The position numbers and the translations under genes were made by a program. A stretch of 64,000 nucleotides of DNA from Platanthera guangdongensis (lineage: Eukaryota > Streptophyta > Magnoliopsida > Asparagales > Orchidaceae), in contig CM077166.1 of NCBI GenBank assembly GCA_039583875.1, positions 88,968,564 to 89,032,563 of the forward strand, written 5' to 3'. Within the stretch, counting starts at the first letter, position 1. Each line of letters begins with the position of its first letter. This document shows positions 15,248-63,975 of this stretch, one piece after another. The notes under the pieces were generated by a model, which was not told the origin of the DNA, ran no database searches, and was given only the letters and a program-made list of their open reading frames with translations.

Positions 15248-17405
15248 TGTAATGCCCCGAAACTCAAAAGAGCGGCGGGAGGCATTTTGGGCCACATTTA
15301 GAACCTGGCAGGGGGCACACTGCCTGGGACACGGGCGTGTCCTAGGGCGTGTCGTGTTTGGGTGGACGATTTGGCCGAGAGGTCGATGAATTTCGGAGTC
15401 GACGATCGTTGAGCAACGAACACGGCCTGAGACACGGGCGTGTCTCAGGGCATGTCGAGCTCGTGTCGACCATCTGCCAGGAAGTAATGTCGAGATACAA
15501 AACACGGCCTAGGACACAGGAGTTTCCATGGCCGTGTCGGGTGGTCAACGAACTGTGCTCGACGAAGTGTCGAGACTGTGAACATAGCCTGGAGCCCAGG
15601 CATGTTCGGGTTTGACACAAGCATGTCAAAGAGGACACGGGCATGTCCAAGACCCGTGTGAGTCTCGTGTTGGTGTTGGTCCAATGTTGACGGAGGAACA
15701 CGCCCAGGAACACGGGCGTGTACTAGCTGATACGATCGTGTCAGGTCGTACACGGGCATGTCAGGTGCCCGTGTGTTTATCGAAATGCGTCAATTTCAAC
15801 GTAAAATGGGGGACACGGCCCTGGATACGGGCATGTCGCAGGCCGTGTTCGGCCCAGGTTTTACATTTCAGCTCCGGATCGTGGCCGTTCGTTTCCTTAT
15901 TATGGGATCTGATAGCTGGGGGTTTTTCCTACTGGGATATACCTGGGATTGGGTCTTTGAAACCCCCATTTCACTTGACTGGTTCTCTTTCTAAGTCTAG
16001 AGAGAGGGGAGAGCAAAGGAGGAAGAAGAAGCCTAGATCCGGTCACTAGCGGAGCTTCGGAGCTCCAAATCACGAGCCGACTTCGGATCTACGGAGGCAA
16101 GGAGATTGCAGTGCTCTTCATACGCGTAGATTTCCATGGTGCTAAGGAAGAATGCTAGGGTAACGATTCTCTACTTGAGCATGTGAAGCTCTTCTTTTCC
16201 CTTGCATAGGAAGCCCGCTCTCGCGAGTTTGCGGTGAGTTGAGGCGTTCCTTCGTGTAGACATGAATAGTCCCCATTGTGTACATGTAGAGTTCGTAATC
16301 GAGAACGGATATAGGCATGATGTGTGAAGCCTACCCATACAAGTTGGTCTGGATCGGTGATGTTGCATTGCATGAATGGCCGGAGAAGGCTCCACGCGAA
16401 TGTTTGTTTTTCGGGTTTTCTACGCGGTAGATTGCAATAGGGAGCCTTGGGGATTAACTCCATGGTGCACACGGAAAACTGGGCAGATGCGTGATTCTGC
16501 CAACATGGTGTCCTGGGAACCAACCTAAACATAACTGGGTTATGTGATATGTGTAGGAGATACGGGACTCGGGGAAGCTTGACCCGCGCAGACGACTTAA
16601 TTGACGTTGCGGTATGAGCAACGAGTCAGGCAGAACCGTGTCCGATCTATGTGGTTCGGTTAGAGAGACCTAAGGTACGTGGTACTCGCCGTTGGCATAG
16701 ATGGAGGGTCTTAGGCAGTGGCCAGAAAGACCAAATGCTCACGAGATATTGCCGTCCAAGGGGCGGGGTGAGTCGACTGACTTAGACCGTGATCAATGAG
16801 AATGTGCGCTGAGAGAACGGGGGGTGTGGCCATGCGTGCCTGCACCTGTGATGTAGTGTTATTACTCTACTTCTTGATTATGCTAATAAAGTGCAGGGAA
16901 GGAGCATCGCCGCCCCAAGTTCGGGGGCGGGATCATTATAATTTGGTCAGCATAGCTGACCGTTGGTTTTGTTTGCCACCGTACGGTGGAATGTTGCTTG
17001 CAGGTGCTGCGGAGCTGAGCGGTAAATAGCTAGCTAAAGCCCAAGTTGCTGAGCTGGCCCTCGAAGGCCTAATTTTGTGTGTTTTCTTTTATTCATGTAT
17101 GGCCGGCGTGCGTGCCGAGGTTTGAAAAACATGTAATTTGAGGAAAACAATTGTAAGGCCTTAAGGCCAGTACTTGTGTATTTGTACTTCATTCCTTTTG
17201 GTTCTGTTTATTGGACATCCATGCTAGTGTTGGGTTCTTGTTATTGCAACTAATATAATTGCTTCCGCTAGATTGACTGTGTGTAGGATGTTGGATTTGT
17301 TGGATGGTTTCCATTGAGTAACCGCCCGGACTATCTGTGGTATATGGCATCGGGCCCCGGACGGACCTTCTGCTATATGCTATGTGACAGATAGGGGGTG
17401 TTACA
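15248..17405 (+). repeat. 3' LTR of Tekay element A (2158 bp)
   Basis: Runs from TGTAATGCCCCG to GGGGGTGTTACA and is homologous to the two LTRs of B in the opposite orientation. In order: an array of dyad motifs (15300-15860), a TATA-like GATATACC near 15935, purine-rich leader, an AATAAA near 16884 and a conserved end. The 5' LTR is outside the window. It is inserted in the integrase of C; TGTAA follows at 17406-17410 but its partner is not visible. Confidence 0.9.
15300..15860 (+). repeat. U3 dyad array, A LTR (GACACGGGCGTGTC type)
   Basis: Many variants of the near-palindrome GGACACGGGCGTGTCC with spacings of about 30-90 bases, mixed with TCGACGATCGTTGAG-type sequence near 15400. More degraded than in the B LTRs, with CpG often changed to TpG or CpA. 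Open frames here (for example 15612-16049) come from the repeats and are not genes. Confidence 0.85.
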
Positions 17406-17709
17406 TGTAAGAATCTGCAAGTAATGTGCATGCAACTTCAATTAAGATTCTATTCTTCCTTTCAGCTACCCCATTTTGTTGAGGAGTTCTAGGAGCTGAG
17501 AAGCAATGCCTGATACCTTCCTTCTTACAGAACTCATGCATAAGAAGAGTCTCAAACTCAGTACCATGATCACATCTGATCAATGCAACTTGAGTACAGT
17601 ACTCAATTTGTATGGTCTTGAGATAATTTGTAAGAACCTTGAATGTATCTGACTTAGATTTCAGAAAGAACACTCAAGTGAATCTTGAGAAGTCATCTAC
17701 TATAATTAG
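17406..17709 (-). pseudogene. Integrase core fragment of SIRE-type Copia C
   Basis: Encodes FFLKSKSDTFKVLTNYLK, then RCDHGTEFET (second catalytic Asp) and [19 protein letters not shown] (catalytic Glu), the DD35E core of Copia integrase. It is the continuation of the integrase at 27158-27225: B was inserted within the VIVDD stretch, and dropping one five-base duplication brings both halves into the same frame. The left side is cut at 17405 by A; the rest of C lies beyond A, outside the window. Confidence 0.9.
17705..17709. repeat. Target-site duplication ATTAG, left copy (B)
   Basis: Pairs with ACTAG at 27158-27162, one mismatch. Confidence 0.75.
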
Positions 17710-19986
17710 TGTAACACCCCCTATCCGTCGCATATATATACCAGTAGGTCCGGCCGGGGCCCGACGCCATAAACCACATACAGACTGGGTGGTTACGTAT
17801 GGAAACCATCCAACCAATCTCAACTTCCTACACAGAGCATTCTAGCGGAAGCAGTTTAGAAGAGTTGTAAACAAGAACCCAGCAACAAGCATGAATGTCC
17901 ACTAATAAGAAAATTGGAATGTTATTACAAATACTCAAAACAAGCCTTAAGGCCTTACAAAAGTTTCACTTGACTGTTACATGATTTACAAACCATGGCA
18001 CGCAGGCCGGTCATACATGAATAAAGCAATAAACATTTCCATTCGGGCCTTCGAGGGCCGGCTTCGCAAAAAGGGCTTTAGCCCGCTATTGACCGCTTGG
18101 TCCGGCTGCACCTGCAAACAACAAACCACCGCACGGTGGCAAAACAAGGCAACGGTCAGCAATGCTGACCAAATTATAACGATCCCGCCCCCAACTCGGG
18201 GCGGCGATGCTCCTTCCCTGCATTTTATTAGCATAAGCGAGCAATAAATACATAGCCATTTCATCACAGACGTTGGCTCGCACGGCCACACGCCCCGTGC
18301 TCTCAGGGCACATTCTTGGTGATCGCAGTCTAAGCCGCTAACACACCACCATCTCTAGGACAGCAATAACTCGTGAGCTAAATGGTCTTTTATGCAAACG
18401 TTACGATACTTTATTGTCATCAACAGCCCATGTCACGACACTTCAATGTCATCGACAGAAAGACTCGACCTTTATGCCCTCGGCATAACGCAGGAACAGT
18501 TCCTACTCAACCCGTTGCTCACTTGCCACGACACTTAAATATCATCGGCACGGGTTAAGCTTCCCCGAAGCCCGTGAATCGAATGTACGATGTTACATAA
18601 CCCAGTTATGTACTAATTGACACCTAGGCCCATAAGTTGGCAAGATCTCGTATCCGCCCAGTTTTTCGGGTGCACCTTTGGGTTAATCCCCGAGGCTCCC
18701 TGCTGCAATCTACCGCGTAGAAAACCCGAAAAACACCCAATAGCGCGGAGTCTTCTCCGGCCTTATGCAATGCAACATCACCGATCCGGACTAACATGTC
18801 CGGGTAGGCTTCAACCAAAATGCCTATGTCCGTTCTCGCATACGGACTCTAAAAAACGGGGACTTTACATATCTACCCGAAGGAACGCCTCCAACTCTCC
18901 GTAAACTCGCGAGAGCGGGCTTCCTATGCTTAAGAAAGAGAGCTAATAGTGCTCAAGATGAGGATCGTTACCCTTGGGTTCCTCTTTGGCGCCATCGAAA
19001 AGTAATCGGATAGAAATCACCGCACTTGCGTTGCCTCCGTGGATCCGGAGTCGGCTTGCGATTCGGAGCTCCGAAGCTCCTCCAATGGCGGATCTAGCTC
19101 CTCTTCCTCCAATGGCTTTTCCCCTTTCTCCAAGGATTTGGAGAGATGAAAAGGTAAGAAAGAATGGATTTTTCTAAGTCAAACCCGGGTATATCCTCTC
19201 AGGAACCATCCCCAGCCGTTGGATCTCAACCTAAGAAAATGAACGGCTTTGATTCGGGGCTGAAATGCCCAATCTGGACCGAACACGGCCTGACACACGC
19301 CCGTGTCCAGGGCCGTGTGCCGCATTCACCGTCAAAATCGAATCTCCTGGACCCTCACACGGGTATCGAACACGCCCGTGTTCGAGCTGACACGCCCGTG
19401 TTCCAGCTGACACGGCCGTGTAGCCGGCCGTGTACCCCATGATTTTCCCCCGTTTTCAACCCGAGCACTGCACGGGTCCTAGGACACGCCCGTGTCCTTG
19501 CCCGTGTCACATTGACACGCCTGGACCCCAGGCCGTGTACATGGGACATTTCATCGAGTGGAGAATGACGACTGGATGACACGGCCTTGGACACGCCCGT
19601 GTCCTAGGCCGTGTGCCTTGTCTCGACGATCGTCGAGTGAATCTCGACGACTCCCCGGGACGATCGTCGACACGGGTCGACACGCCCTACGACACGCCCG
19701 TGTCGCGGGCCGTGTGCTCATTCTCGACGAATCGTCGAGTATATCTCGACGATTTCACGGCTAAGTGTCGACACGGGTCGACACGCCCTGCGACACGCCC
19801 GTGTCGCAGGCCGTGTGCCCATTCTCGACGAATCGTCGAGTATAACTCGATGACTTCGCGACTAAGTGTCGACACACGCTTGACATGCCCTGGGACACGC
19901 CCGTGTCCCAGGCCGTGTGCCTTCTGCCAGAACCCAAACTGGCCCAAAACATCCCCCTTTGCTCCTTTGAGTTTCGGGGCGTTACA
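17710..19986 (-). repeat. 3' LTR of element B (2277 bp)
   Basis: In element orientation it starts TGTAACGCCCCG at 19986 and ends GGGGGTGTTACA at 17710. U3 has the dyad array (19925-19260), then a TATA-like GATATACC near 19195. A sequence AATAAAATGCAGGG (minus, near 18230) is a candidate polyadenylation signal. The first and last seven bases form a terminal inverted repeat. Confidence 0.95.
19260..19925 (-). repeat. U3 dyad array, B 3' LTR
   Basis: Two interleaved motifs: GACACGCCCGTGTC-type near-palindromes, and TCGACGATCGTCGA or TCGACGAATCGTCGAG. A block of about 100 bases containing both is repeated at roughly 19620, 19720 and 19830. The array is upstream of the TATA-like site, in the U3 enhancer position. 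Confidence 0.9.
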
Positions 19987-20000
19987 ACTCTACCCCTCTT
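19987..20000 (-). other. Polypurine tract of element B
   Basis: AAGAGGGGTAGAGT on the minus strand, abutting the 3' LTR start TGTAACGCC. Confidence 0.8.
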
Positions 20001-24879: not shown

Positions 24880-27157
24880 TGTAACACCCCCTATCCGTCG
24901 CATAGTATATAGCAGTAGGTCCGGCCGGGGCCCGACGCCATATACCACAGACAGACCGGGTGGTTACGTATGGAAACCATCCAACCAATCTCAACGTCCT
25001 ACACAGAGCATTCTAGCGGAAGCAGTTTAGAAGAGTTGTAAACAAGAACCCAGCAACAAGCATGAATGTCCACTAATAAGAAAATAGGAATGTTATTACA
25101 AATACTCAAAACAAGCCTTAAGGCCTTACAAAAGTTTCACTTGACTGTTACATGATTTACAAACCACGGCACGCAGGCCGGTCATACATGAATAAAGCAA
25201 TAAACATTTCCATTCGGGCCTTCGAGGGCCGGCTTCGCAAAAAGGGCTTTAGCCCGCTATTGACCGCTTGGTCCGGCTGCACCTGCAAACAACAAACCAC
25301 CGCATGGTGGCAAAACAAGGCAACGGTCAGCAATGATGACCAAATTATAACGATCCCGCCCCCAACTCGGGGCGGCGATGCTCCTTCCCTGCATTTTATT
25401 AGCATAAACGAGCAATAAATACATAGCCATTTCATCACAGACGTTGGCTCGCACGGCCACACGCCCCGTGCTCTCAGGGCACATTCTTGGTGATCGCAGT
25501 CTAAGCCTCTAACACACCACCATCTCTAGGACGGCAATAACTCGTGAGCTAAATGGTCTTTTAGGCAAACGTTACGACACTTTATTGTCATCAACAGCCC
25601 ATGTCACGACACTTCAATGTCATCGACAGAAAGACCCGACCTTTATGCCCTCGGCATAACGCAGGAACGGTTCCTACTCAACCCGTTGCTCACTTGCCAC
25701 GACACTTAAATATCATCGGCACGGGTTAAGCTTCCCTGAAGCCCGTGAATCGAACGTACGATGTTACATAACCCAGTTATGTACTAATTGGCACCTAGGC
25801 CCATAAGTTGGCAAGATCTCGTATCCGCCCAGTTTTCCGGGTGCACCTTTGGGTTAATCCCCGAGGCTCCCTGCTGCAATCTACCGCGTAGAAAACCCGA
25901 AAAACACCCAATAGCACGGAGTCTTCTCCGGCCTTATGCAATGCAACATCACCGATCCGGACTAACATGTTCGGGTAGGCTTCAACCAAAATGCCTATGT
26001 CCGTTCTCGCATACGGACTCTAAACAACGGGGACTTTACATATCTACCCGAAGGAACGCCTCCAACTCTCCGCAAACTCGCAAGAGCGGGCTTCCTATGC
26101 TTAAGAAAGAGAGCTAATAGTGCTCAAGATGAGGATCGTTACCCTTGGGTTCCTCTTTGGCGCCATCGAAAAGTAATCGGATAGAAATCATCGCACTTGC
26201 GTTGCCTCCGTGGATCCGGAGTCGGCTTGCGATTCGGAGCTCCGAAGCTCCTCCAATGGCGGATCTAGCTCCTCTTCCTCCAATGGCTTTTCCCATTTCT
26301 CCAAGGATTTGGAGAGATGAAAAGGTAAGAAAGAATGGATTTTTCTAAGTCAAACCCGGGTATATCCTCTCAGGAACCATCCCCAGCCGTTGGATCTCAA
26401 CCTAAGAAAACGAACGGCTTTGATTCGGGGCTGAAATGCCCAATCTGGACCGAACACGGCCTGGCACACGCCCGTGTCCAGGGCCGTGTGCCGCATTCAC
26501 CGTCAAAATCGAATGTCCTGGACGCTCACATGGGTATCGAACACGCCCGTGTTCGAGCTGACACGCCCGTGTTCCAGCTGACACGACCGTGTAGCCGGCC
26601 GTGTACCCCATGATTTTCCCCCGTTTTCAACCCGAGCACTGCACGGGTCCTAGGACACGCCCGTGTCCTTGCCCGTGTCACATTGACACGCCTGTACCCC
26701 AGGCCGTGTACACGGGACATTTTGTCGAGGGGAGAACGACGACTGGATGACACGGCCTTGGACACGCTCGTGTCCTAGGCCGTGTGCCTTGTCTCGACGA
26801 TCGTCGAGTGAATCTCGACGACTCCCCGGGACGATCGTCGACACGGGTCGACACGCCCTGCGACACGCCCGTGTCGCGGGCCGTGTGCTCATTCTCGACG
26901 AATCATCGAGTATATCTCGACGATTTCACGGCTAAGTGTCGACACGGGTCGACACGCCCTGCGACACGCCCGTGTCGCAGGCCGTGTGCCCATTCTCGAC
27001 GAATCGTCGAGTATAACTCGATGACTTCGCGACTAAGTGTCGACACATGCTTGACACGCCCTGGGACACGCCCGTGTCCCAGGCCGTGTGCCTTCTACCA
27101 GAACCCAAACTGGCCCAAAACGTCCCCCTTTGCTCCTTTGAGTTTCGGGGCGTTATA
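24880..27157 (-). repeat. 5' LTR of element B (2278 bp)
   Basis: Nearly identical to 17710-19986. The terminal base pattern on the right is CGTTATA instead of CGTTACA, one substitution. The U3 dyad array is at 26450-27100 and the TATA-like site near 26367. Confidence 0.95.
26450..27100 (-). repeat. U3 dyad array, B 5' LTR
   Basis: Copy of the array at 19260-19925 with scattered substitutions, several at CpG (for example GACACGACCGTGT near 26581). Confidence 0.9.
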
Positions 27158-27162
27158 ACTAG
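27158..27162. repeat. Target-site duplication ACTAG, right copy (B)
   Basis: One mismatch to ATTAG at 17705-17709. The frame across the junction supports a five-base duplication. Confidence 0.75.
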
Positions 27163-27840: not shown

Positions 27841-28361
27841 TTAGTTGTTCTTGACCCATATTACCTTGGGTCCTTTATTTTTCTGATAAAAAAAACTTGA
27901 TATAACTTAAAATTCATGTTGGGATTTATATCCTAAGGGATGGTATCTCCTAGGTGGAATTTCCCAATTAGCATAAGGATTAAAAGATTTACTAGATTGA
28001 TTAGAGTTTTTCTTAAAATTATGATTTTTGTTAAGTCTGACTGGGTTCGACGAAAAGTTGTAAGTTCGTCGACCAGAGTTCGACGAAGTAGGATGAGATC
28101 ATTGATCTCTGCTCAGAGAATGAATATATTCATTTTCTACGCCCTAAGTTCGTCGATCTCTTCTCGTCGAACCATACAAGATTCGTCGATCATAGTAAGG
28201 GGAACTATTATGGCTAATATTTGTGTTCATAGATCGTCGATCGTAGTTCGACGAACTAGCCATATTTCATTGATCTGAGTTCGATGAAATCTGTTGAACT
28301 TTGTTTTTACTTAGATTTTTCTTGTTTCTATTCTGTTGTTTTTTAGATTCAGGTAATTCTT
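27841..28361 (-). pseudogene. Gag-protease linker of C containing a TCGTCGA motif array
   Basis: Plus-strand positions 28040-28290 hold about ten TCGTCGA/TCGACGA or GATCGTCGATC motifs, the same motif family as in the C LTR (31140-31505). One minus-strand frame stays mostly open through it, with only three stops, and continues into NPYANWEIPPRRYHPLGYKS (near 27985-27930), which resembles the collinear KSQPEYS stretch of F. So the array lies in what was coding sequence. Confidence 0.65.
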
Positions 28362-30087: not shown

Positions 30088-30891
30088 ATTGAAAGTGGTG
30101 GTATGCACTAATACCACCAGTGGGTTAGACTATTTAACTCTAGGGGGGGGGGTGTATAGAGTATTTTAAAGTCCTTTAGATTTTTATTTCAGAGTTAAAA
30201 ATAGTTATACTAATAAGTGGAATCAGAAAGGTGCAGAAATAAAACTAATCTAATCAGCAATCAGCACACAAAAAGAAATAAAGTAGCCTCACAGACGACA
30301 AAAGAATATTATAGTGGTTCCCCTAAAACTTGGGTACATCCACTCTTCTACCACCCTGGTAGGAATCCACTTAGGTTTTTGATCAGGTGCCCTGCCACCA
30401 AACAGGTTTTTGCTCAGGTGTCTGTCACTACAAGATCCGCTTCAGGTAGAACAGGAAACCCTTCAGGCTTTTGATCAGGTGCCTAAAAACCAAATCAAGT
30501 CTTTTGATCAGGAGACTTGCAACCAAGTGTTTAACTTTTGAGGGGAGTTATAACCCTGTGTATAGTGGGATGGAACAGATAAACTAGATATTATCTTCTC
30601 TTTCTCAAAGCAACAGAGTAGGCTTGTGGATTCTTGATGGTGTCAAAGCTCCCCCAGAGATGAAGATCTATTCAGGAAGAATGAGAGCTTTGCAAGGTTA
30701 GTAGGTCTTCTAAAGATTTTCTAGAAAGTTGTAGACAGATAGTAGTTGATTGTATCTGAAAGCTTGTTGGAGTATGAACACTTGATGAAGACAGTCAGAG
30801 CCTTTTATTGAATATTTTTAGGTGTCAGTCTTGTTCTCTGTGTGTTCTGCTATTCATGTTATATGTTCTATACTGAAAGAGAAAAATATCT

Positions 30892-30902
30892 TTTTATATA
30901 TC
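30892..30902 (-). promoter_or_regulatory. TATA-like box, C LTR
   Basis: GATATATAAAAAG-type sequence on the minus strand, about 240 bases downstream of the dyad array. Confidence 0.6.
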
Positions 30903-31139
30903 TCTGTCTAATTTCACCCTTGAATTTGAATTGTCTGCATTGAATGCTGACTGCCTGGAGAATGAAAATTCGGCTGGAGAGAATATTGCATTAATGGATT
31001 TCCCCAACTGTCCTATTAAAAATGGCAAGTAATATTCCTGATAAAGACCATAATCAATGTTGCCACTAATGGCTAGATTCAGAGAATATACGCATTGATT
31101 ATTCAAGAATTATTGCAAGAGAATAAGGACAAAATGCGG

Positions 31140-31505
31140 AAAATTCCAAGTCTGGGACTGCACTGAATTCGTCGAGCAGAGAACAAATTTCATCATCCTG
31201 AGTCCAAAGTTTGTCGACCAGAGAAATCGAGTTCGTCGACCTGAGAACCAAGTTCGTCGACCTGAGATCAGCTAACTGCTTTCTGTGAAGTACTTCCCAA
31301 ATCTGTGCTCCAAAATCATCGAGCTGATAATGTAACTTCATCGACCTGAGTTCAGAGAAAGGATTCTGGACTTAATGTGTTGAAGTTGATCTCCCAGAAT
31401 TCGTCGACCTGAGCTCGAATATCGTCGAGCTCAACTCAGAGAATTTACTCTGAATTCGTCGAGCGAAGCATGACTTTCGTCGAGCTGAGTTCGACGAACA
31501 TCGAA
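31140..31505 (-). repeat. U3 dyad array, C LTR (TTCGTCGA type)
   Basis: About eleven copies, plus-strand consensus TTCGTCGACCTGAG or TTCGTCGAGCTGAG, spaced roughly 15-45 bases, ending with GAGTTCGACGAACATCGAA. GTCGAC and TTCGTCGAA cores are dyad-symmetric. Confidence 0.9.
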
Positions 31506-32013
31506 CTCATTTTTTCTGAACTGATTTTTTTCTAAGTCTGAGTCTTCTGCAGTCTTCTGTTGGTTGGTCCATGAGTGGTTGAAACTAAGGACTTAGCCTA
31601 AACTCTAGAACACAAAGACATGACCCTGACTATACATGGTGGGTCAATTATCCTAGATTAGTGAACCTAGCCCAAATCAAACTAGGGATTCAACATTGAG
31701 GTTTCCAGCCATGGATCTTGTCACCCTTCTTTAAGACATATTCTTCTCCCTCATTGGTGTTCATTCTCCATGGGAAAGAGAGGAACATAGAGAAGTTTCT
31801 TCTAGTAGTCAGCTCAGGCGACTCCACTATTTTGTCAGGATAGACCAGTAACGGCTCGACAAAGACAACTGTTCGGCAAAGTGGCAAATAGACGGCTAGG
31901 GTTTTCTGCACGTCCGTTTTATAATGAGAAATTAGGGTAACTTTCTTTCATTGTGTTGGCCTGACATTGTACAGCGTAATTTGCTTTAAATGAGTCATCT
32001 TGAAAGAATGCGG

Positions 32014-34084: not shown

Positions 34085-34802
34085 TGAAAGAAAACTGTTG
34101 TCGACCTAAATCACCTAGAGGGGGGTGAATAGGTGGTTTGTACGTCTTTTGCGGAATAAAAAATAATTAGAGCACTGCACAGAAATATCTACCAATATAA
34201 CAAACGACACAAGATGTATAGTCGTTCCCCAACCTTGGGTACATCCACTTTCCTTCACCGATCTAGCAATCAACTAGACTCTGCTACTCCACTATCTCGG
34301 ATCAAAAACCGATCCTACCCTCGGAACAAAGTTCCTACAAACTCGATCCAAACAAAACGGATCTACACCTCGGAAGATAACACTTCCTACAAACTCGGAG
34401 TGAAAAACTCCTACACTCGGAGAAGATTTCTCCTACAAGATTAATAAAGAGTTTACAAGAATACAAACAGTAAATCACTCAGATCTGAAGGAAACGGCCA
34501 GGATCTTCTTCTTTTCAACTTTGTAACACTTTCAGAAATCGGTGAAGAAGTTCTCGGCCTCGATCTGGATCTACTCGCTTTTACGGAAATCGAGAAAGAA
34601 TATGATCAGTGAAGTCGATCTCGATCTGTAACTTTTCTTCAGAATAATACTCTCAAAATAGAAGCTTTGGCCGGAGAAGAAGGCGGCGGCGGCGGCTTTC
34701 GTTTCGCGAAAGTCAGAGAGGAGGCGGCTGAAGAATATTTCTCGAAAAAGAAATTACAAGAAAGCTTTAAGAATACTTAGGGTTTGTCATTTTCTGATAA
34801 GA

Positions 34803-34812
34803 CCTTATATAG
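34803..34812 (-). promoter_or_regulatory. TATA-like box, D 3' LTR
   Basis: CTATATAAGG on the minus strand, downstream of the array in element orientation. Confidence 0.65.
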
Positions 34813-34924
34813 GAGAGACTAACGGTCATAATCAGTCATAATGATGTACACGTGGACCAATCATGTCGCGTGATTGAAAAATCCCGTCAGAAAAATGACT
34901 TAGAAAAATTTCGGAAAGATTTGG

Positions 34925-35290
34925 TCAACTACACGAGTAAGTCAATAACTACTCGAGTAGTTGAATAACTACTCGAGTATATGATGGGAAACATACTCGG
35001 GTATGTATAAAAAAGACTACTCGAGTATATAGAGATCAACTACTCGAGTAGGCAGACAGAACTACTCGAGTATGTGAAGGGACCTACTCGAGTATATAGA
35101 GGATCTACTCGAGTACTAGAAAAGCTACTCGAGTATATTACATAACCTACTCGAGTACAAGAAGTACTACTGGAGTGGAATACTTAGAAAAATTCTGAAG
35201 AGGTCTGCTGGCAACAACTCAAGTAGTTGAACTAAACTACTCGAGAGAAAGTAATCTACTCGAGTAGGTGAAAGTTCTACTTGAGTAAAA
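34925..35290 (-). repeat. U3 dyad array, D 3' LTR (TACTCGAGTA)
   Basis: About 11 CTCGAG cores, mostly ACTACTCGAGTAG or ACTACTCGAGTATAT, spaced about 20-30 bases, plus decayed copies (ACACGAGTA, TACTCGGGTA, TACTGGAGT). Confidence 0.92.
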
Positions 35291-35394
35291 GACTTAAACA
35301 AATTCTGGAGTCGAAGCATCAAATACAACTTAATTCATCTTAGTTCCAGGGTGACTTCATCAAATCTGGGTTCATGTGGATGAAATACCCAACA

Positions 35395-37990: not shown

Positions 37991-38002
37991 GGAAGCGAAT
38001 GC

Positions 38003-38030
38003 CTGGAGGAAATTAAAGAGAGAGAACTCT
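38003..38030 (-). promoter_or_regulatory. 3' splice-site-like sequence before the D extra ORF
   Basis: On the minus strand TTCTCTCTCTTTAATTTCC leads to TCCAG^GC, 13 bases upstream of the ATG. It would suit a spliced subgenomic mRNA. F has the same arrangement. Confidence 0.5.
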
Positions 38031-38129
38031 GCAACTTCGGCGAAGGTGAGTCGGCAGGGTAGGCGAAGAGACAGGGGGGGTACTCGAGAGATAGAAATGA
38101 TATCGAGTAGGTTTGATGTTTTGGAATTT

Positions 38130-38143: not shown

Positions 38144-38261
38144 TCTTAAATTTTCGCTAATTAAGTTAAAGAAAGAGGCGGCATATAGCCTTGGGTGGCG
38201 AATAGAACAATTTTTTTTGAAAAACTGGGAATCAGGACACGAGAGAGAGAGAGAGAGGCTC

Positions 38262-44161: not shown

Positions 44162-44881
44162 ATTGAAAGAAAACTGTTGTCGACCTAAATCACCTAGAGG
44201 GGGGTGAATAGGTGGTTTGTGTGTCTTTTGCGGAATAAAAAATAATTAGAGCACTGCACAGAAATATCTACCAATATCACAAACGACACAAGATGTATAG
44301 TGGTTCCCCAACCTTGGGTACATCCACTTTCCCTCACCGATCTAGCAATCAACTAGACTCGGCTACTCCACTATCTCGGATCAAAAACCGATCCTACCCT
44401 CGGAACAAAGTTCCTACAAACTCGATCCAAACAAAACGGATCTACACCTCAGAAGATAACACTTCCTACAAACTCAGAGTGAAAAACTCCTACACTCGGA
44501 GAAGATTTCTCCTACAAGATTAATAAAGAGTTTACAAGAATACAAACAGTAAATCACTCAGATCTGAAGGAAATGGCCAGGATCTTCTTCTTTTCAACTT
44601 TGTAGCACTTTCAGAAATCGGTGAAGAAGTTCTCGGCCTCGATCTGGATCTACTCGCTTTTACAGAAATCGAGAGAGAATATGATCAGTGAAGTCGATCT
44701 CGATCTGTAACTTTTCTTCATAATAATCCTCTGAAAGTAGAAGCTTTGGCCGGAGAAGAAGGCGGCAGCGGCGTCTTCCGTTTCGCGAAAGTCAGAGAGG
44801 AGGCGGCTGAAGAATATTTCTCGAAAAAGAAATTACAAGAAAGCTTTGAGAATACTTAGGGTTTGTCATTTTCGGATAAGA

Positions 44882-44891
44882 CCTTATATAG
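44882..44891 (-). promoter_or_regulatory. TATA-like box, D 5' LTR
   Basis: CTATATAAGG on the minus strand, about 120 bases downstream of the array. Confidence 0.65.
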
Positions 44892-45009
44892 GAGAGACTA
44901 ACGGTCATAATCGGTCATAATGATGTACACGCGGACCAATCATGTCGCGTGATTGAAAAATCTCGTCAGAAAAATGACTTAGAAAAATTTCGGAAAGATT
45001 TGGCCAACT

Positions 45010-45722
45010 ACACGAGTAAGTCAATAACTACTCGAGTAGTTGAATAACTACTCGAGTATATGATGGGAAACATACTCAGGTATGTATAAAAAGACTACTC
45101 GAGTATATAGAGATCAACTACTCGAGTAGGCAGATAGAACTACTCGAGTATATGAAGGGACCTACTCGAGTATATAGATTATCTACTCGAGTACTGGAAG
45201 AGCTACTCGAGTATATTACATAACCTACTCGAGTACAAGAAGTACTACTCGAGTGGAATACTTAGAAAAATTCTGAAGAGGTCTGCTGGCAACTACTCGA
45301 GTATTTGAACTAAACTACTCGAGAGAAAGTAATCTACTCGAGTAGGTGAAAGTTCTACTCGAGTAAAAGACTTAGAAAAATTCTGGAGTAGGGAAATAGC
45401 AAGGTACACGGGTCACACATGAACTACTCGAGTAGGTAAAATGAACTACTCGAGTATGTTTCTATCTACTCGAGTATGTGAGTATACTTACTCGAGTATA
45501 TGACTTAGAGAAATTTAGATGAGAAAAACATTATGGTAATCGGGTATAACGAGTAATCTACTCGAGTATATAAGCATGCTACTCGAGTATATGACTTGGT
45601 CTACTCGAGTAGGTGACTTAGCTACTCGAGTATATGACTATGTCTACTCGAGTACAAGATTCCTTTACTCGAGTAACTTATACCCAGACTACTCGAGTAG
45701 GTAAAAGCTCTACTCGAGTAAA
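45010..45722 (-). repeat. U3 dyad array, D 5' LTR (TACTCGAGTA)
   Basis: About 26 CTCGAG cores counted by eye in 700 bases, most inside ACTACTCGAGTA. Flanks vary (GTATATGA, GTAGGT, GTACAAGA), spacing about 18-35 bases with two larger gaps (45390-45420, 45500-45555). Confidence 0.93.
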
Positions 45723-46048
45723 ACACTTAGAAATTTTCTGATGTTGGAAAAACTGATTCTTCTAGAGTAGCCAACTTCCAATGTCTTTCCCATAGTCCAA
45801 TATCTTGAATATGAAGTGTATCCCAATAGAGAGACCACACATGAGTCAACACCTTGGAATATGTAATGAGGGATTACATTGCACAGCTCCTGTGTTTGGT
45901 GACCCACTGTAGGCTGACATTGGCCTACACTTCCCAGTGAAACTCCTACAAACATATAGCTCAACCCAAGCATCAAAAACAACTTAATTCATCTTAGTTC
46001 CAGGGTGACTTCATCAAATCTGGGTTCATGTGAATGAAATACCCAACA

Positions 46049-48517: not shown

Positions 48518-49974
48518 TGAAAGTGAGGGATAGATAGAATTTACTCTAGAGGGGGGTGAATAGAGTATTAAAAAATTTGTTTATATTTATTGCGGCATTA
48601 AAATATTGATGCATATATGAAAGAGGAAATTGCACATAAAACTATCACAACACAATACAAAAAGAAAACACAAGGCAACCAGATGACATAAGAAATTTTA
48701 TAGTGGTTCCCCAAATCTGGGTACATCCACTCTTCTACCACCCTGGTAGGAATCCACTTAGGTTTTTCATCAGGTTCCCTATCACCACATGATCTGCTTC
48801 AGGTAGATCTAGAAACGCTTCAAGTTTTTGATCAGGTGCCTAAAAAATAATAGGTTTTTGATCAGCTGCCCTATCACCAAGGAGTTCACTTTTGAAAGGA
48901 GTAATAACCCTGTACAAGAGAGGTTAAAGAAAAATAGATGATAGTCTTCTCTTTCTCAAACACAATGAGAATATTATGTGGATTTGATGATGCCAAAGCT
49001 CCCTCTGAGATATTGAGTAGATTCAGGAAGATGGAAGCTTTGTCCAGGGTGTAGGTCTTCAGATTGATGTTGATTTCCAACAAGCTTTCTTAGATCTGTA
49101 GACTGATATTGATTTGAGCTCTCTATAGATTTTTGAATCCTGAGGAAAAGGAGAAGACTAGAGAGAATTGTGTGTTGAAAAAATTCTTCTTCTTTCTTGT
49201 TTTAGCAATGCAAGAGTCCTTGAGAACAAACAAAATTATTTTCTGACTTACTGTCTGACTGATTATTGTTGTACTCTTTCTTTTTTGAGTTCTCTATTTT
49301 AATCAGAATGGCCAACGACATAAATTTGAATTCCCAAGACAGTACTTAATTCTCTGCAAGAATTTAGGAGCCCCAATGGCTAGAATGACTGGCAATCATA
49401 AATGCACTTCCAATGATGTCTTTACAGAATATTCTGTGAATACCATAATTAATGCTTCAAGAAATACAGCTATCAGCCTTGAGAATGTCAGCATTAATTA
49501 TTAGAATATATTTGCCTTAAAATAATTCATCATAACCAAAATAAATACTTCTAACCGATCTGAGAAGAAATGATAACTGAAGGCAGCATAAATCGTAGAG
49601 CTTAGTTCAGAGATCGTCGAACTGAGTTAATAGATCGTCGACCTGAGAACCACTATCGTAGATCTGAGAAAACTGCTGAGAAGCACGAGATCATCGACCT
49701 GAGCTCGTAGATCGTCGAGCTCAGTTCAGAGTAGAGGACTCTGAGATCATCGATGGGAGATCGACGATCGTCGAGCTGAGTTCGACTATAGTCGAACTGA
49801 TATAGATAATCCATAAAATCTTTCTAAATCTAAGTATGAGTCCATTGCAATGCTGGTCCGCACAAACCTGACCTAAAAGGATCTAACTAAGACTAGACAA
49901 GGAGCCAGGCTATACACGGGGTTCAAGACATCCTAAGAGTGAACCTAGCACAAATCCAATCAAGGTTTCCAACA
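48518..49974 (-). repeat. 3' LTR of SIRE-type Copia F (1457 bp)
   Basis: TGAAAGTGAGGG at 48518 to GTTTCCAACA at 49974. The polypurine tract at its right edge shows it is the 3' LTR of a minus-strand element. Resembles the C LTR throughout (CTAGAGGGGGG tract near 48545, TTGGGTACATCC region, TCAGGTGCC repeats). Inserted in gag of E. Confidence 0.92.
49597..49803 (-). repeat. U3 dyad array, F LTR (GATCGTCGA type)
   Basis: About ten copies of AGATCGTCGACCTGAG-like sequence, including the longer dyad GATCGACGATCGTCGAGC near 49760. Same position in the LTR as in C, with the motif shifted from TTCGTCGA to GATCGTCGA. Confidence 0.88.
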
Positions 49975-53100: not shown

Positions 53101-53125
53101 CTGTAGACTCAAGAGAGAAGAGATC
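53101..53125 (-). promoter_or_regulatory. 3' splice-site-like sequence before the F extra ORF
   Basis: On the minus strand CTCTTCTCTCTTGAGTCTACAG, ending seven bases before the ATG. Matches the arrangement in D (38003-38030) although the sequences differ. Confidence 0.5.
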
Positions 53126-53229
53126 AAGAGCAAAGGGAAAATAGAATATCAAAGCACGAGACAGAGGTCGAAGAGAAACCTACATATAGGTTTTTGGAAT
53201 ATGAAAAGACGATCTCTGTCTGACGATAA

Positions 53230-53480
53230 AATCAAAAACGTCGATCTTAGGTCAAAGATTTATTTATAAACAAATAATATCTTTGGTCTCTGATCTCAAT
53301 TGGAAATTGATAGTCGAGCATAGCTTGAAGATTAATTTACTGAAGCAAAGTCATCGATCTCTGGTCGACGATTTTTGTCTTCACACAGAGCTGTCATCAA
53401 ACTCATGTCGATGATTTAGCTCAAGATCAGTTCGAAGATCGTCGATCTCCGTTCGACGATTTAGGAACAGATCCAAAAAA
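53230..53480 (-). repeat. Internal motif array of F, between pol and extra ORF
   Basis: About seven GATCGTCGATCTC, GGTCGACGATTT and CGTTCGACGATTT motifs, the same family as the F LTR array. A TATA-like TTTATAAATA (minus, near 53265) lies on the ORF side. Confidence 0.75.
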
Positions 53481-53499
53481 ACCGAATACAAAAATTAAA

Positions 53500-56744: not shown

Positions 56745-56819
56745 TGTTAACCCCGAAATCGTCGATCCTTCCCGAGGTAGCCAGCTCGCTCATCGCGGCC
56801 TGCCACAGGTTCCTCCTTG

Positions 56820-57740
56820 AGGCCGCGATGCCCTAGGTTGGGCGGACAGAGTTCTCTATCCGCTCAGGCCGCGCGGCCTGCACGGTCTCAGCGGTCTGAC
56901 CCCCCAGGCTGCGTGCCTTTCCTTGGTCGGCAGGTCCACGGACTGCTTCCGCAGTCCGCCTCTGCAGGCCGCCCCCTTTTCAGCTTAACTGCAAAGTTGT
57001 TTCCGCAGGACTCTATCTACCAGAATCAATTCCCTATCCACTATACAACTACTATGGCTTCTGCCTCGTCAACATGCTCGACCTGCCTCGCCAGCCCAGC
57101 AGGACATATGTCCTTTGTCACCCGGCAGCGTGGGAAGCCACCTTCACCAGTCCGCCTAAGGAGTGCAGACTCCAACTCCGCCACTACTCACAGAAATCAA
57201 CAGCAACAACCCGTTCATTGCGAGCTCTGCAGACTAAAAGTATGGTGAAGATTTCCAGTCCGCCTCCATTGTTGAACCCCAACAGCCAAGCAGCAGAATT
57301 CCCTCAAAGCAGTCCCAGGCCGCCCAGTCTCCTGTGGACTTTGCGGACTCTGCGGACTCAGCGGGCGCTCCTCCGCTCGCATTACCTTTGCTCACAGTTC
57401 AACTGTGGTGGACTCCGTGGGTTCTCCTCGCAGTCCGCCACATAGCTCCCAGCTCTCGCTTTCCAGCAGCAGGCAGTCCCAGTTCAACTATGGCGGACTC
57501 CGCGGGTTCTCCTCGCAGTCTGCCACATAGCTCCCAGCTCCTACTTTCCAGCAGCGGGCAGTCCCAGCTTAGCAGTGACGGACTCCGCGAAACTGCATCG
57601 CAGTCCGCCACTGAGTCTTCCATTTCTGCCAAGTAGCTCCGACTTCAGTTCCATTCCCAGTCCGCGCGGCTTGTTGCGGACTCCGCGGACTCCGTTCCCA
57701 TCTCGCTCAAGTTACTGTTTCACCAGGGGTAACGTCACCG
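56820..57740 (+). repeat. U3 repeat region, H 5' LTR (GCGGACTCCGCGG)
   Basis: Dispersed CAGTCCGCC, GCGGACTCCGCGGACTCC and CGCGCGGCCTG motifs on both strands, in the same promoter-proximal position as the arrays of the other families. Confidence 0.8.
57396..57650 (+). repeat. 85-bp tandem repeat in H U3, three units
   Basis: Units start at 57396, 57481 and 57566 (AGTTCAACTGTGG, AGTTCAACTATGG, AGCTTAGCAGTGACGG), each with GACTCCG and CGCAGTC(C/T)GCCAC. The same units occur near 62865-63115 in the other LTR. Confidence 0.88.
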
Positions 57741-57761
57741 TAAGCCGTTACCTCCTCGGGC

Positions 57762-57771
57762 CTATAAATAG
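57762..57771 (+). promoter_or_regulatory. TATA box, H 5' LTR
   Basis: CTATAAATAG, a very good plant TATA box; the transcript of H would start about 30 bases downstream. Confidence 0.75.
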
Positions 57772-58096
57772 CCCGACATGCCTCTCATTTGGCCAGGTCT
57801 GGGGTCGCTGGATGATAGAGTTCTCGTCATCGCCAAGGCGCTCACGCCGTCAGCCAGCCCTCTGGCGAACTCCGTTTCTCAGTGCGCACCAACTCTCCTC
57901 TAGTCGCGCGGCCTGCCGACTCGCCTGTCCAGCCCGCGTGGTCACCTTTTGATCTCCAATCCGCACGGCCTGCCTGTTGTGCCCTTCAGTCCGCGCGTCC
58001 TCTTCTGGCACCTCTTCCTTAGCCTCCAGCTTCCCTTTGTACTCCTTTATTGCTTTGTTGTAAACGTGTATAGGCAAGCTTGTAACTCTCGCTATT

Positions 58097-58102
58097 AATA
58101 AA
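58097..58102 (+). terminator. Polyadenylation signal, H 5' LTR
   Basis: AATAAA about 330 bases after the TATA box; the same signal at 63566-63571 in the 3' LTR is the one that would end the genomic RNA. Confidence 0.6.
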
Positions 58103-58505
58103 GGAAAGCCCGTCGCAAGAGTGGCATTTAACCCGCGGTGGTCGAAGTCTGCTGTTGCCGTTACTAGCGGCCCCTTCTCCCTTCTCTCTAGCTCAACTCA
58201 GCTCCTCTCGGCAACCAACCTGCAAGTACAACCGTCATATTAACCGTCTGCTCGACAGCTCCTGATCAACCTCCTCCTCTCTTAATCGACCTTTTTTGTT
58301 GATCAAGCTTCTCCTCTGCTCTCAGCACCCTCTTCTCTATCCCCGCAACCTCCTAGACAAGCTGCTTACTCCACTCTCGAGCACTCAGAAGCTTCCCTCT
58401 TCTCCTCTATCCCCGTGACCTTCATCCTCTTGCTCTCCTAGCTTGTGAGACCGAACACGCTTCCCTCCGTGTTAGCTGCACCGATGCCGTTTTCGCGCAT
58501 CAACA

Positions 58506-62061: not shown

Positions 62062-62214
62062 GAAAATAGCTAGACAGCACCGAGCTCCTAAGGAGAGGCT
62101 TCAGGTTCTATCTCTCCTTGCCCCCCTTCTCTTTCCGTTGGGGTGAATCACGATTTTCGTGGATCTCCAACTTTTTCGAAGTTCTTTTCGGAACTTAAAA
62201 AAGTGCAGGGATTA
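62062..62214 (+). other. End of H internal region
   Basis: Runs to the 3' LTR. The purine-rich AAAAAAGTGCAGGGATTA before the LTR start is a weak polypurine tract. Confidence 0.5.
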
Positions 62215-63975
62215 TGTTAACCCCGAAATCGGCGATCCTTCCCAAGGGAGCCAGCTCCCTTATCGCGGCCTGCCCCGGGTTCCTCCTGGAGGTCGCGATG
62301 CCCTAGGTTGGGCGGACAGAGTTCTCTGTCCGCTCAGGCTGCGCGGCCTGCACGGTCTCAGCGGTCTGACCCCCCAGGCCGTGCGCCTTTCCTTGGTCGG
62401 CAGGTCCACGGACTGATTCCGCAGTCCGCCTCTGCAGGACGCCCCCTTTTCAGCTTAACTGCAAAGTTGTTTCCGCAGGACTCTCTCTGCCGGACTCAAT
62501 TCCCTATCCTCTAGATAGCTACTACGGCTTCTGCCTCGTTAACATGCACGGTCTGCCTCGCCAGCCAAGCAGGTCGTATGTCTTTTGTCGCCCGGCAGCA
62601 TGGGCAGCAACCTTCGCCAGTCCGCCTAAGGAGTGCGGACTACAACTCCGCCACTACTCGCAGAAATCAATAGCAACACCCCGTTCATTGCGAGCTCGAC
62701 GGACTCAAAGTATGGTCAAGACTTCCAGTCTGCCTCCATTGGTGAACCCCAACAGCTAGGCAGCAGAATTCCCTCAAAGCAGTCCCAGGCCTCCCAGTAT
62801 CCTATGGACATTGCGAACTCTAGGACTCAACAGGCGCTCCTCCGCTCGCATTCCCTTTGCTCACAGTTCAACTATGGCGGACTCCGCGGGTTCTCCTCGT
62901 AGTCCACCACATAGCTCCCAGCTCCCTCTTTCGAGCAGCGGGCAGTCCCAGTTCAACTATGGCGGACTCAGCGGGTTCTACTCGCAGTCCGCCGCATCGG
63001 TCCTAGCTCCCGCTTTCCAGCAGCAGGCACTCCCAGCTCAGCAGTGACGGACTCCGCGAACCTGCATCGTAGTCCGCCACTGAGTCTCCCATTTCTGCCA
63101 AGCAGCTCCGACTTCAGTTCCAGTCCCAGTCCGCGCGGCCTATTGCGGACTCCGCGGACTCCGTTCCCATTTCGCTCAAGTTACCGTTTCACCGCGGGTA
63201 ATGTCACCGCAAGCGGTTACCTCCTCGGACCTATAAATATCCCCCCATGCCTCTCATTTGGCCAGGTTTGGGGTCGCTGGACACTCGAGGTATCGTCATC
63301 ACCAAGGCGCTCACACCGTCAACCAGTCCTCCTGCAGACTCCATTTCTCAGTCCACACCAGCTCTCCTCTAGTCGCGCGGCCTGTCGACTCGCCTATCCA
63401 TCCCGCGCGGTCCCCTTTTGCTGTACAGTCCGTGCGGCTTGCCTGCTGTGCCCTTCAGTCTGCGCGGCCTCTTCTGGCACCTCTTCCTTAACCGCAAGCT
63501 TCCCTTTGTACTCCTTTATTACTTTGTTGTAAAGGTGTATAGGCAAGCTTGTAACTCTCGCTATTAATAAAGGAAAGCCCGTCACAAGAGTGGCATTTAA
63601 GCCGCGGCGGGCGAAGTCTGCTATTGCCGCTACTAGCGGCCCCTTCTCCCTTCTCTCTAGCTCAGCTCAGCTCATCTCGGCAACCACCCAACAAGCACAA
63701 CCGTCATATTAAACCGTCTGCTCGACAGCTCCTGATCAACCTCCTCCTCTCTTGATCGACCTTTTTTGTTGATCAAGCTTCTCCTCTACTCTCAGCACCC
63801 TCTCCTCTATCCCCGCAACCTCCTAGACAAGCTGCTAGCTCCACTCTCGAGCACTCAGAAGCTTACCTCTTCTCCTCTATCCCCGCGACCTTCATCCTCT
63901 TCCTCTCCTATCTTATGAAACCAAACACGCTTCCCTCCATGTTAGCTGACCCAGTGCCATTTTTGCACATCAACA
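62215..63975 (+). repeat. 3' LTR of H (1761 bp)
   Basis: Same length as the 5' LTR, with scattered substitutions (for example CGGCGATCC against CGTCGATCC at the start). TATA box at 63231-63240, AATAAA at 63566-63571, followed by the ATAAG duplication. Confidence 0.95.

What the first reader, a model, noticed from the sequence alone, without database searches (positions are those of the whole stretch)
15300..63180. Five retrotransposon families each pack U3 with short dyad or repeated CG-rich motifs
The arrays are D: TACTCGAGTA; C and F: TTCGTCGA/GATCGTCGA; E: TTCGACGAA plus GTTGAGTnnACTCAAC; A and B: GACACGCCCGTGTC plus TCGACGATCGTCGA; H: GCGGACTCCGCGG. Copia and Gypsy families share the design though the LTRs are otherwise unrelated. 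Where a TATA-like box is visible, the array is upstream of it. This suggests a common selective force in one host, such as a transcription factor class, methylation-related control or an RNA-silencing interaction. Tandem promoter boxes are known in single elements (Tnt1, Tto1); this parallel use across lineages is, to my knowledge, not a described system.
Basis: partly seen in the sequence, partly recalled or inferred. Interest (0 to 1): 0.88.

Follow-up and report, generated by a model that had tools for sequence, protein, structure and literature searches.

The report
Switching palindrome arrays in plant retrotransposons
Several unrelated jumping-gene families in a large plant genome, probably an orchid's, carry dense arrays of short CG-rich motifs at the promoter end of their long repeats, and some close relatives carry a different palindrome at the same place, which hints at binding sites for DNA-binding proteins.

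Summary
The arrays are real. In 7 of 7 array-bearing LTR families the U3-side part holds repeated CG-rich words beyond all 100 shuffles (F narrowly); an Athila-like family (G) does not. As true dyads only B and D stand far out. The arrays are not confined to U3: D and F have a second cluster between pol and an envelope-like region, C has one between gag and pol.

D and F, and partly C, match the described Sirevirus repeated-motif boxes (Bousios 2010), so the design is known for Copia. Three things go further. (1) Gypsy families have it, and TCGTCGA recurs in Gypsy (B, E, weakly A) and Copia (C, F). (2) It is genome-wide: 38 arrays in 19 of 25 random 10-kb stretches; GTGTCGACAC occurs 2,076,908 times against 2,228 for the reversed control. 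(3) Relatives of D carry a different palindrome at the homologous place.

Best reading: cis-regulatory arrays for dimeric DNA-binding proteins. No binding, transcription-start or small-RNA data were available. New variant of a known kind.

The parts
44164..46048 (-). D 5' LTR (Copia, Sirevirus-like); TATA-like box at 44890
   Evidence: LTR pair with 34085-35394; TG...CA ends, 5-bp flanks CCAAC/CCATC
45009..45720 (-). D 5' LTR U3 array, TACTCGAGTA 24 exact; gaps under 30 bp average 21.5 +/- 1.0
34085..35394 (-). D 3' LTR; U3 array 34930-35287 with 10 exact TACTCGAGTA; TATA-like box at 34811
38260..38520 (-). D internal array between the end of pol and the envelope-like frame, 11 exact TACTCGAGTA, spacing 21.0 +/- 1.0
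35642..38128 (-). D envelope-like open frame, 829 codons (first Met at residue 47); no Pfam family, no homologue found, no window above 1.26 on the Kyte-Doolittle scale, KKKRK at about residues 732-736
48518..49974 (-). F 3' LTR (Copia); ends approximate; array 49592-49800 with ATCGTCGA on a 7-bp lattice
   Evidence: PPT AGGGGGAG at 49984
53340..53460 (-). F internal cluster between the end of pol and envelope-like pieces; in 52600-53600 3 exact TCGTCGA and 10 with at most one mismatch
   Evidence: shuffles 0.09 and 2.55
30088..31712 (-). C 5' LTR (Copia); ends approximate; array 31168-31497 with TTCGTCGA; TATA-like box at 30900
28046..28285 (-). C internal TCGTCGA array between gag and pol, 8 exact copies
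   Evidence: same layout in L027
31713..32913 (-). E 3' LTR (Gypsy); ends approximate; arrays 32126-32455 (TTCGACGAA, steps mostly 15-21 or two to three times that) and 32482-32760 (GTTGAGT..ACTCAAC-like, units of 64-69); TATA-like box at 31923
24880..27160 (-). B 5' LTR (Gypsy); array 26450-27096: ACACGGGCGTGT, TCGACGAATCGTCGA, TCGACGATCGTCGA, GTGTCGACAC; 101-bp units
17710..19989 (-). B 3' LTR, same motifs at 19295-19925
15245..17405 (+). A 3' LTR (Gypsy, related to B); ACACGGGCGTGT at 15329, 15432 and 15710, 2 TCGTCGA-type sites
56745..58505 (+). H left LTR (Gypsy-type gag inside); GCGGACTCCGC-like sites 57343-57695, 85-bp units; TATA-like box at 57763
62215..63975 (+). H right LTR with a like array 62860-63155; TATA-like box at 63232
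13004..14670 (-). G LTR (Gypsy; Athila-like by its primer site, a label from recall; pair 3765-5564): control without an array

Best explanation
Each array is a row of binding sites for a dimeric sequence-specific DNA-binding protein, working as the element's enhancer: in U3 upstream of the LTR promoter and, in the Sirevirus-like elements, a second time in front of the envelope-like gene (or between gag and pol), where it would serve an internal promoter. Tandem amplification makes and homogenises the rows; selection keeps the core while spacers drift, and a whole row changes to a new palindrome through half-site variants when a subfamily moves to another factor. Shown: the arrays, their places, a uniform core among differing spacers in D, symmetry in the D-like arrays, sharing of motifs between superfamilies, different palindromes at homologous places. 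Inferred: protein binding, enhancer activity, the identity (host or element) of the factor, selection as the cause, the direction of the change.
For: Uniform core: of all TCGA sites in D's arrays, picked by TCGA alone, 24 of 26 (5' LTR), 10 of 12 (3' LTR) and 11 of 14 (internal) are full TACTCGAGTA; spacer positions around 32 core-like sites mostly have a commonest letter at only 31-50% (its 94-100% for the core is partly by construction, as sites were picked by at most 2 mismatches to it). The same core sits in both the LTR and the internal array of one element (D; C; F) and differs between D and C/F. LTR arrays lie upstream of the TATA-like box in C, D, E and H. The internal array begins within about 30-110 bp of what I read by eye as the pol stop in D, F and L013. 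At homologous places the palindrome differs as a set: U3 D TACTCGAGTA 24 of 26, L030 TTCTCGAGAA 13 of 15 (flank 75% identical over 194 bp); pre-envelope D TACTCGAGTA 11 of 14, L013 GTGTCGACAC 10 of 19 and no TACTCGAGTA (pol flank 70% over 844 bp); L007 and L008 (pol flank 83% over 978 bp) hold mixed half-sites such as TACTCGAGAA. Arms symmetric at 3 or more of 4 outer pairs: D 25/26, 10/12, 12/14; L030 13/15; L013 33/35 and 11/19; L022 19/24; L033 12/21; against 14.7% of all 1,036 TCGA sites of the 250-kb sample, these arrays included. TCGA is enriched in U3 of A-F but not clearly in G or H.
Against: No binding, reporter or transcription-start data. Unit lengths differ by family (7-bp lattice in F, 15-21, 21, 85, 101 or more), so there is no common spacing rule; at a 10.5-bp period the phasing is 0.39 and 0.52 in D's LTR arrays and 0.87 in its internal array. 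C and E arrays are not dyads by my test. Symmetry is low in L026 (0/9), L006 (1/4) and L005 (11/25) and mixed in L007 and L008 (5/8 each). L005-L008 lie within about 16 kb of each other, so they are not independent. CpG transitions between paired LTRs are as common in arrays as outside (B 8/180 v 9/186, D 5/36 v 8/86, H 27/167 v 18/115 CpG positions), so I see no post-insertion protection. TCGA is also above expectation inside D (38 v 24.1, array included) and F (14 v 6.6). Tandem amplification alone can give uniform cores.
Confidence: 0.6

Rival explanations
1. Neutral tandem-repeat turnover: slippage in reverse transcription and unequal exchange amplify any short word in a length-tolerant part of the LTR; CG words stand out by chance or history.
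For: Array length differs between the two LTRs of D (24 v 10 exact boxes). Tandem units of about 20-23, 50, 64-69, 85 and 101 bp are found by the tandem-repeat finder. A larger tandem block of another kind lies in the sample (L029).
Against: In D the core is uniform while spacers differ. Palindromes are replaced by palindromes in D's relatives. CG is in the top word of 31 of 38 sample arrays against 22.6% background, TCGA in 16 of 38 against 2.1% (arrays of one family are not independent). TCGTCGA is shared by three LTR groups without other similarity; arrays built from shuffled units gave a triple share in 6 of 3,000 simulations.
Confidence: 0.16
2. RNA-level role: the repeats fold into hairpins in the 3' U3 and internal part of the transcript and are templates for small RNAs, or serve packaging.
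For: Fold energy below 60 shuffles each (first 500 nt of a segment): B z -10.9, D -10.1, D internal -10.5, A -6.5, C internal -6.2, second E array -6.4; eight controls -2.3 to +1.3. Maize Sirevirus palindromes are reported small-RNA hotspots (citing passages read in PMC5311732 and PMC10760457).
Against: The TTCGACGAA array of E folds no better than shuffles (z +1.4); C -2.0, H -3.1, F -3.7. Any row of palindromes folds, so the fold may be a by-product.
Confidence: 0.12
3. An element-encoded DNA-binding protein reads the element's own arrays, in the way the VANC proteins of Arabidopsis VANDAL transposons are thought to counter silencing (recalled, not looked up).
For: LTR and internal arrays of one element share a core that differs between relatives. 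D's large open frame next to its array has no strongly hydrophobic stretch and a KKKRK stretch near its end.
Against: TCGTCGA and GTGTCGACAC are shared by Copia and Gypsy. Four Sireviruses without an envelope gene also have boxes (Table 3 of PMC2829016). No known domain or homologue found; the fold attempt failed (pLDDT 32.2).
Confidence: 0.08
4. Host silencing sites: host factors such as the REM proteins that bring RNA polymerase IV to short tandem motifs mark these arrays.
For: In Arabidopsis, REM factors bind double or triple tandem motif units much better than single ones and recruit the Pol IV complex (passages read, PMC12270911). Array CpGs do decay by transitions.
Against: The motifs reported there (TTTTGCTTAT, AAGCGGAT) do not resemble these. 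A silencing mark should be lost from successful elements, yet arrays are dense in the genome.
Confidence: 0.04

Closest known systems
Sirevirus repeated-motif (RM) boxes (Bousios et al. 2010, PMC2829016)
   Same: Palindromic, high copy number, CpG-rich, in the LTR upstream of a TATA box, with a second cluster 5' of the envelope-like gene; D and F also show the AT/TG attachment site and the C-rich signal near the LTR end.
   Different: Core is TCGA, not CGG-CCG (Vitis and Tnd-1 in their Table 3 also have a TCGA centre). Copy number is within their range on their way of counting: 3' LTR plus internal array gives 21 exact boxes in D, their maximum is 32; both LTRs counted, D has 45. Here Gypsy families have arrays too, the Gypsy-type H bears a CGG-CCG box, and palindromes differ at homologous places between relatives.
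Maize Opie/Ji LTR palindromes (Bousios et al. 2016; only citing passages read)
   Same: Palindrome rows in the cis-region of LTRs.
   Different: That work concerns CACCGGAC..GTCCGGTG boxes in Copia elements and small-RNA mapping; neither was tested here.
Tnt1/Tto1 tandem promoter boxes (recalled; box I of Tnt1 is mentioned in PMC2829016)
   Same: Repeated cis boxes in U3.
   Different: A few copies in single elements, not a pattern across superfamilies of one genome.
VANDAL/VANC motif arrays (recalled)
   Same: Short repeated motifs differing between related elements, in non-coding parts.
   Different: DNA transposons with a known element-encoded binder; none is known here.

Membership tests
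Sirevirus (element D) | Copia order INT before RT with RVT_2 | tested here: met
   PF00665, PF25597, PF07727 in that order in one frame
Sirevirus (element D) | Terminal PPT AGGGGGAG followed by AT/TG | tested here: inconclusive
   AT/TG present, octamer varies (AGGGGGGCG)
Sirevirus (element D) | Multiple PPT copies near the 3' LTR | tested here: not met
   one further AGGGGGAG, at 36312 inside the envelope-like frame
Sirevirus (element F) | Terminal PPT AGGGGGAG followed by AT/TG | tested here: met
   AGGGGGAGATTG at the 3' LTR edge
Sirevirus (element F) | Multiple PPT copies | tested here: inconclusive
   two octamers, 49984 and 51899; the paper's average is four
Sirevirus (D, F, C) | C-rich integrase signal near the LTR end | tested here: met
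   a C-run inside TATTCACCCCCCTCTAG in D and F and a longer C-run in C, found by eye 20-60 bp from the LTR end
Sirevirus (D, C) | Conserved 5' LTR/internal junction with primer site | tested here: met
   AGTATCAGAGC (D) and TGGTATCAAAGC (C) right after the LTR end; the tRNA it pairs with is from recall; F has no 5' LTR in the window
Sirevirus (D, F, C) | Place in the RT tree | not tested
   no tree was built
Sirevirus RM box | Array in the LTR upstream of TATA and 5' of the envelope-like gene | tested here: met
   D both; F both clusters but no usable TATA-like box; C an LTR array upstream of TATA and a gag-pol array instead
Sirevirus RM box | CGG-CCG core | tested here: not met
   TCGA core in D, C, F; CGG-CCG only in the Gypsy-type H (GCGGACTCCGC)
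Transcriptional enhancer array | Binding and activity | not testable with these tools
   no expression or binding data
Small-RNA hotspot palindromes | Excess of small RNAs on the array | not testable with these tools
   only folding was tested
VANC-like anti-silencing | Element-encoded protein that binds the array | tested here: inconclusive
   no homologue, no Pfam family, poor model

The most novel reading that the evidence does not exclude
In this genome Copia and Gypsy elements have converged on TCGA-centred dyad arrays that are read by the same or sister DNA-binding proteins, and the palindrome evolves by half-site switching, in concert between the LTR array and the internal array of an element, as a specificity race with a fast-evolving binder (a host factor family or an element-encoded anti-silencing protein). 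Two million copies of one 10-bp palindrome would then form a genome-wide sink for that protein.
Probability: 0.2. Interest if true: 0.88.

Novelty: new variant of a known kind. Interest (0 to 1): 0.72.

Why it matters
Sirevirus palindrome boxes have been on record since 2010, and that paper could name no common binding factor. Here the same design is found in Gypsy families and at very high dose in a probable orchid genome, with sister elements that differ in palindrome at homologous places. That makes a natural experiment: each palindrome predicts a different binding specificity and each half-site hybrid an intermediate.

Tried and rejected
Helical phasing as a common rule: rejected, unit lengths differ and of the window's arrays only D's steps, and C's and F's 21-bp lag, are near 21 bp. 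CpG-island protection: not seen in the B, D and H pairs. 'All are dyads': rejected. Envelope-like frame as a recognisable DNA-binding or membrane protein: undecided; two homologue searches found nothing, Pfam nothing at E up to 5, and the single-sequence AlphaFold2 model of 245 residues of its N-terminal part is unusable (pLDDT 32.2), so no fold search was made. D and F envelope-like pieces show no similarity. Exact motif search in viral contigs gave 4 contigs with one TACTCGAGTA pair each in the same short context; no array, taken as unrelated. Motif text searches in papers gave hairpin-oligo noise and nothing of use in the listings. Within 10-kb stretches only some sample arrays could be tied by similarity to a window LTR or pol flank or to a direct-repeat pair (L010, first of L012, first of L013, L022, L025, L026, L027, third of L030, first of L030 by D's flank); the others stay unassigned. 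Long exact words shared across families (B-F 15 letters, A-E 16, C-E 14): none of 1,000 shuffles reaches B-F or A-E, 11 of 1,000 reach C-E. Genome-wide counts of TTTCTCGAGAAA, ACACGGGCGTGT, TACTCGAGAA, a TTCGTCGA pair, TTGTGTCGACAC, GTGTTGACAC and GTATCGACAC were asked for but did not complete.


Full report
What is there. The window is a nest of LTR retrotransposons. On the minus strand lie B (Gypsy, LTRs 17710-19989 and 24880-27160), C (Copia, 5' LTR about 30088-31712, interrupted by B as judged from its match to F), D (Copia, LTRs 34085-35394 and 44164-46048, inserted in E), E (Gypsy, 3' LTR about 31713-32913), F (Copia, 3' LTR about 48518-49974) and G (Gypsy, LTRs 3765-5564 and 13004-14670, inserted in A). 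On the plus strand lie A (Gypsy, 3' LTR 15245-17405) and H (Gypsy-type gag, LTRs 56745-58505 and 62215-63975, next to F). The window is G000:C20:88968564-89032563 of a 4,245,561,818-base genome. The best match of D's pol piece is from the orchid Platanthera zijinensis, 84% over the whole query (best 120 of 7,992 listed); sizes of about 4.2 Gb follow from the repeat figures for two Platanthera species in PMC9023349 (passages read). So the host is probably a Platanthera-like orchid; this is an inference.

Check of the observation. Repeated 7-mers exceed the maximum of 100 dinucleotide shuffles in 7 of 7 array U3 segments (F by 5 to 4) and in 1 of 8 R/U5-side segments (H, 5 to 4); G's U3 does not exceed it. 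The two internal arrays (C between gag and pol, D before the envelope-like frame) exceed it, the 6 other internal segments do not. As dyads with arms of 5 or more and a CpG inside, only B (16 against 2.5), D (24 against 0.9) and D's internal array (11 against 0.5) stand far out; A, F, H and C-internal are weak (z 2.0-2.6), no better than some array-free segments (D pol 3.5, G U3 2.7, H internal 2.1, B R/U5 2.0); C and E are at chance. So 'repeated CG-rich motifs' is right for all seven, 'dyads' clearly for two.

Shared words. TCGTCGA/TCGACGA is the commonest 7-mer of the window, 59 against 4.2 +/- 1.8 in 50 shuffles: LTRs of B 9 and 8, C 8, E 8, F 5, A 2, H 1; C's internal array 8; elsewhere 10, of which three in F's internal cluster. 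TCGA against a first-order expectation in U3: A 8 v 3.5, B 18 v 5.1, C 14 v 5.0, D 26 v 5.7, E 19 v 7.9, F 9 v 4.3, G 1 v 0.3, H 2 v 2.7; internals: B 22 v 20.2, G 27 v 26.6, H 16 v 11.1, D 38 v 24.1 (its array included), F 14 v 6.6. Simulated arrays from shuffled units shared a word among three groups in 6 of 3,000 runs; the B null gave more words than the real B (67 v 26), which makes the test strict, but the choice of groups was made after seeing the data. B also holds GTGTCGACAC twice per LTR, the palindrome of Copia arrays below.

Anatomy. In D's 5' LTR 24 exact boxes, in its 3' LTR 10, lie from about 120 bp upstream of a TATA-like box outwards, to about 830 and 480 bp. A second row of 11 sits between the end of pol and an 829-codon open frame. 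F has a like cluster at 53340-53460 (in 52600-53600 10 sites with at most one mismatch against 2.55, 3 exact against 0.09). C has 8 sites between gag and pol. Of D's TCGA sites 24 of 26, 10 of 12 and 11 of 14 are full TACTCGAGTA, while spacer positions mostly have a commonest letter at 31-50%. Spacing differs: D 21.5 (5' LTR), 21.4 (3' LTR) and 21.0 (internal), each +/- 1.0 for gaps under 30; F multiples of 7 (all ten strongest lags), C partly so (4 of 10); E mostly 15-21 or multiples; B 101, A 103 and 115; H 85.

CpG and RNA. CpG transitions between the two LTRs of one element are as frequent in arrays as outside: B 8/180 v 9/186, D 5/36 v 8/86, H 27/167 v 18/115 CpG positions. RNA folding (first 500 nt, 60 shuffles) is strong in A, B, D, D-internal, C-internal and the second E array (z -6.2 to -10.9), weak in C, F and H (-2.0 to -3.7) and absent in the first E array (+1.4); eight controls run from -2.3 to +1.3.

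Genome-wide test. They were scanned for 8-mers seen at least 5 times in 400 bp. There are 38 merged arrays in 19 of 25 stretches (30 in 14 of 20, 8 in 5 of 5); one shuffle of each of the first 20 (stretches with N left out) gave 0. The top word holds CG in 31 of 38 (22.6% background) and TCGA in 16 of 38 (2.1%); 7 of 38 have no CG in the top word. Arrays of one family recur, so the p-values there (2e-14, 2e-17) overstate the case. Of the 50 most over-represented 8-mers that occur at least 20 times and in at least 5 of the first 20 stretches, 39 contain CG against 46 of all 743 that qualify. Exact genome counts against the reversed pattern: TACTCGAGTA 263,017 v 7,045, TCGACGATCGTCGA 54,754 v 49, GTGTCGACAC 2,076,908 v 2,228. 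The reversed controls lack CpG and so are, if anything, favoured by composition. TACTCGAGTA did not occur in the 250-kb sample, where an even spread would give about 15, so it is clustered; GTGTCGACAC occurred 91 times, near the 122 expected.

Palindrome switching. Flanks of D's arrays were searched in all fetched stretches of the genome (L005-L033). L030 matches D's U3 flank (75% over 194 bp) and R/U5 (70-86% in pieces), yet its array has TTCTCGAGAA at 13 of 15 TCGA sites and no TACTCGAGTA. L013 matches D's pol end (70% over 844 bp), and just after what I read as the pol stop has GTGTCGACAC (10 of 19 TCGA sites) and no TACTCGAGTA. L007 and L008 (83% over 978 bp) have mixed half-sites at the same place, 8 TCGA sites each: TACTCGAGAA twice, TACTCGAGTA, TTCTCGAGAA and GTCTCGAGAC once, the rest other forms. 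L026 matches U3 (68% over 254 bp), but its array is built of TTCTCGACGAATCGTCGAGAA-like and longer dyads and scores 0 of 9 on the simple TCGA-arm test. L006 has the flank (78% over 251 bp) and only a remnant of three boxes. L005 has TTCTCGAGAA seven times and TACTCGAGAA three times with a D-like R/U5 (78%). L005-L008 were found because they hold TACTCGAGTA and lie within about 16 kb, so they are neither random nor independent; L013, L026 and L030 are from the random sample. C-like and F-like copies in the sample repeat the layout: L027 has TCGTCGA arrays between gag and pol and in the LTR, L022 next to an LTR match and next to the pol end.

Comparison. The Copia side is the Sirevirus RM box system (PMC2829016: abstract, sections 6, 7, 9, 10, 13 and passages read). 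D fails the multiple-PPT feature and has a variant octamer; F meets the PPT and attachment site; no RT tree was built, so I call them Sirevirus-like. The CGG-CCG core is not met by D, C or F. Not found in my searches: the Gypsy side, the TCGA centring, the switching (listings only, except PMC2829016, PMC5311732, PMC10760457, PMC11656987, PMC12270911 and PMC9023349, of which I read the passages or sections named or, for PMC11656987, twelve passages).

Verdict. Regulatory arrays for dimeric DNA-binding proteins explain most; repeat turnover with chance is the main rival.

Noticed in passing
28046-28285; L027:4601-5300: TCGTCGA arrays between gag and pol in C and a relative: an internal position not named for RM boxes in the sections of the 2010 paper that I read.
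   Followed up: partly
35642-38128: Intact envelope-like frame of 829 codons without a strongly hydrophobic stretch, with a KKKRK stretch near the end; no homologue found.
   Followed up: partly
G000, L009-L033: AGGGGGAG, the Sirevirus PPT octamer, occurs 56 times against 8.9 expected, in 19 of 25 random stretches, which may reflect many Sirevirus-like elements.
   Followed up: no
L026:7101-8000: Array of long dyads (AGTGATTCTCG...CGAGAATCACT) in a relative of D, which seems to link the CTCGAG and TCGTCGA types.
   Followed up: partly
L025:1647-2714 and 5682-6746: One direct-repeat pair, presumably LTRs, carries both TCGACGAA and GTGTCGACAC arrays.
   Followed up: no
1-240: Fragment 85-86% identical to the U5 end of the D LTRs, on the other strand: another D-like copy at the window edge.
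   Followed up: no
47981-48044: Perfect 31-bp tandem duplication near the protease region of E.
   Followed up: no
L001-L004: Four viral contigs share one short context with two TACTCGAGTA 21 bp apart.
   Followed up: no
13004-14670: G, the control, has loosely repeated GCAGCCC and GGCCGGCC words in U3 that do not reach significance.
   Followed up: no
30088-30900; 48524-49239; 49990-55934: R/U5 of C and F and F's body are strongly CpG-poor (observed/expected 0.07, 0.09, 0.19) while their U3 is at 0.76-0.81; most U3 CpGs lie in the motifs (18 of 26, 16 of 22).
   Followed up: partly
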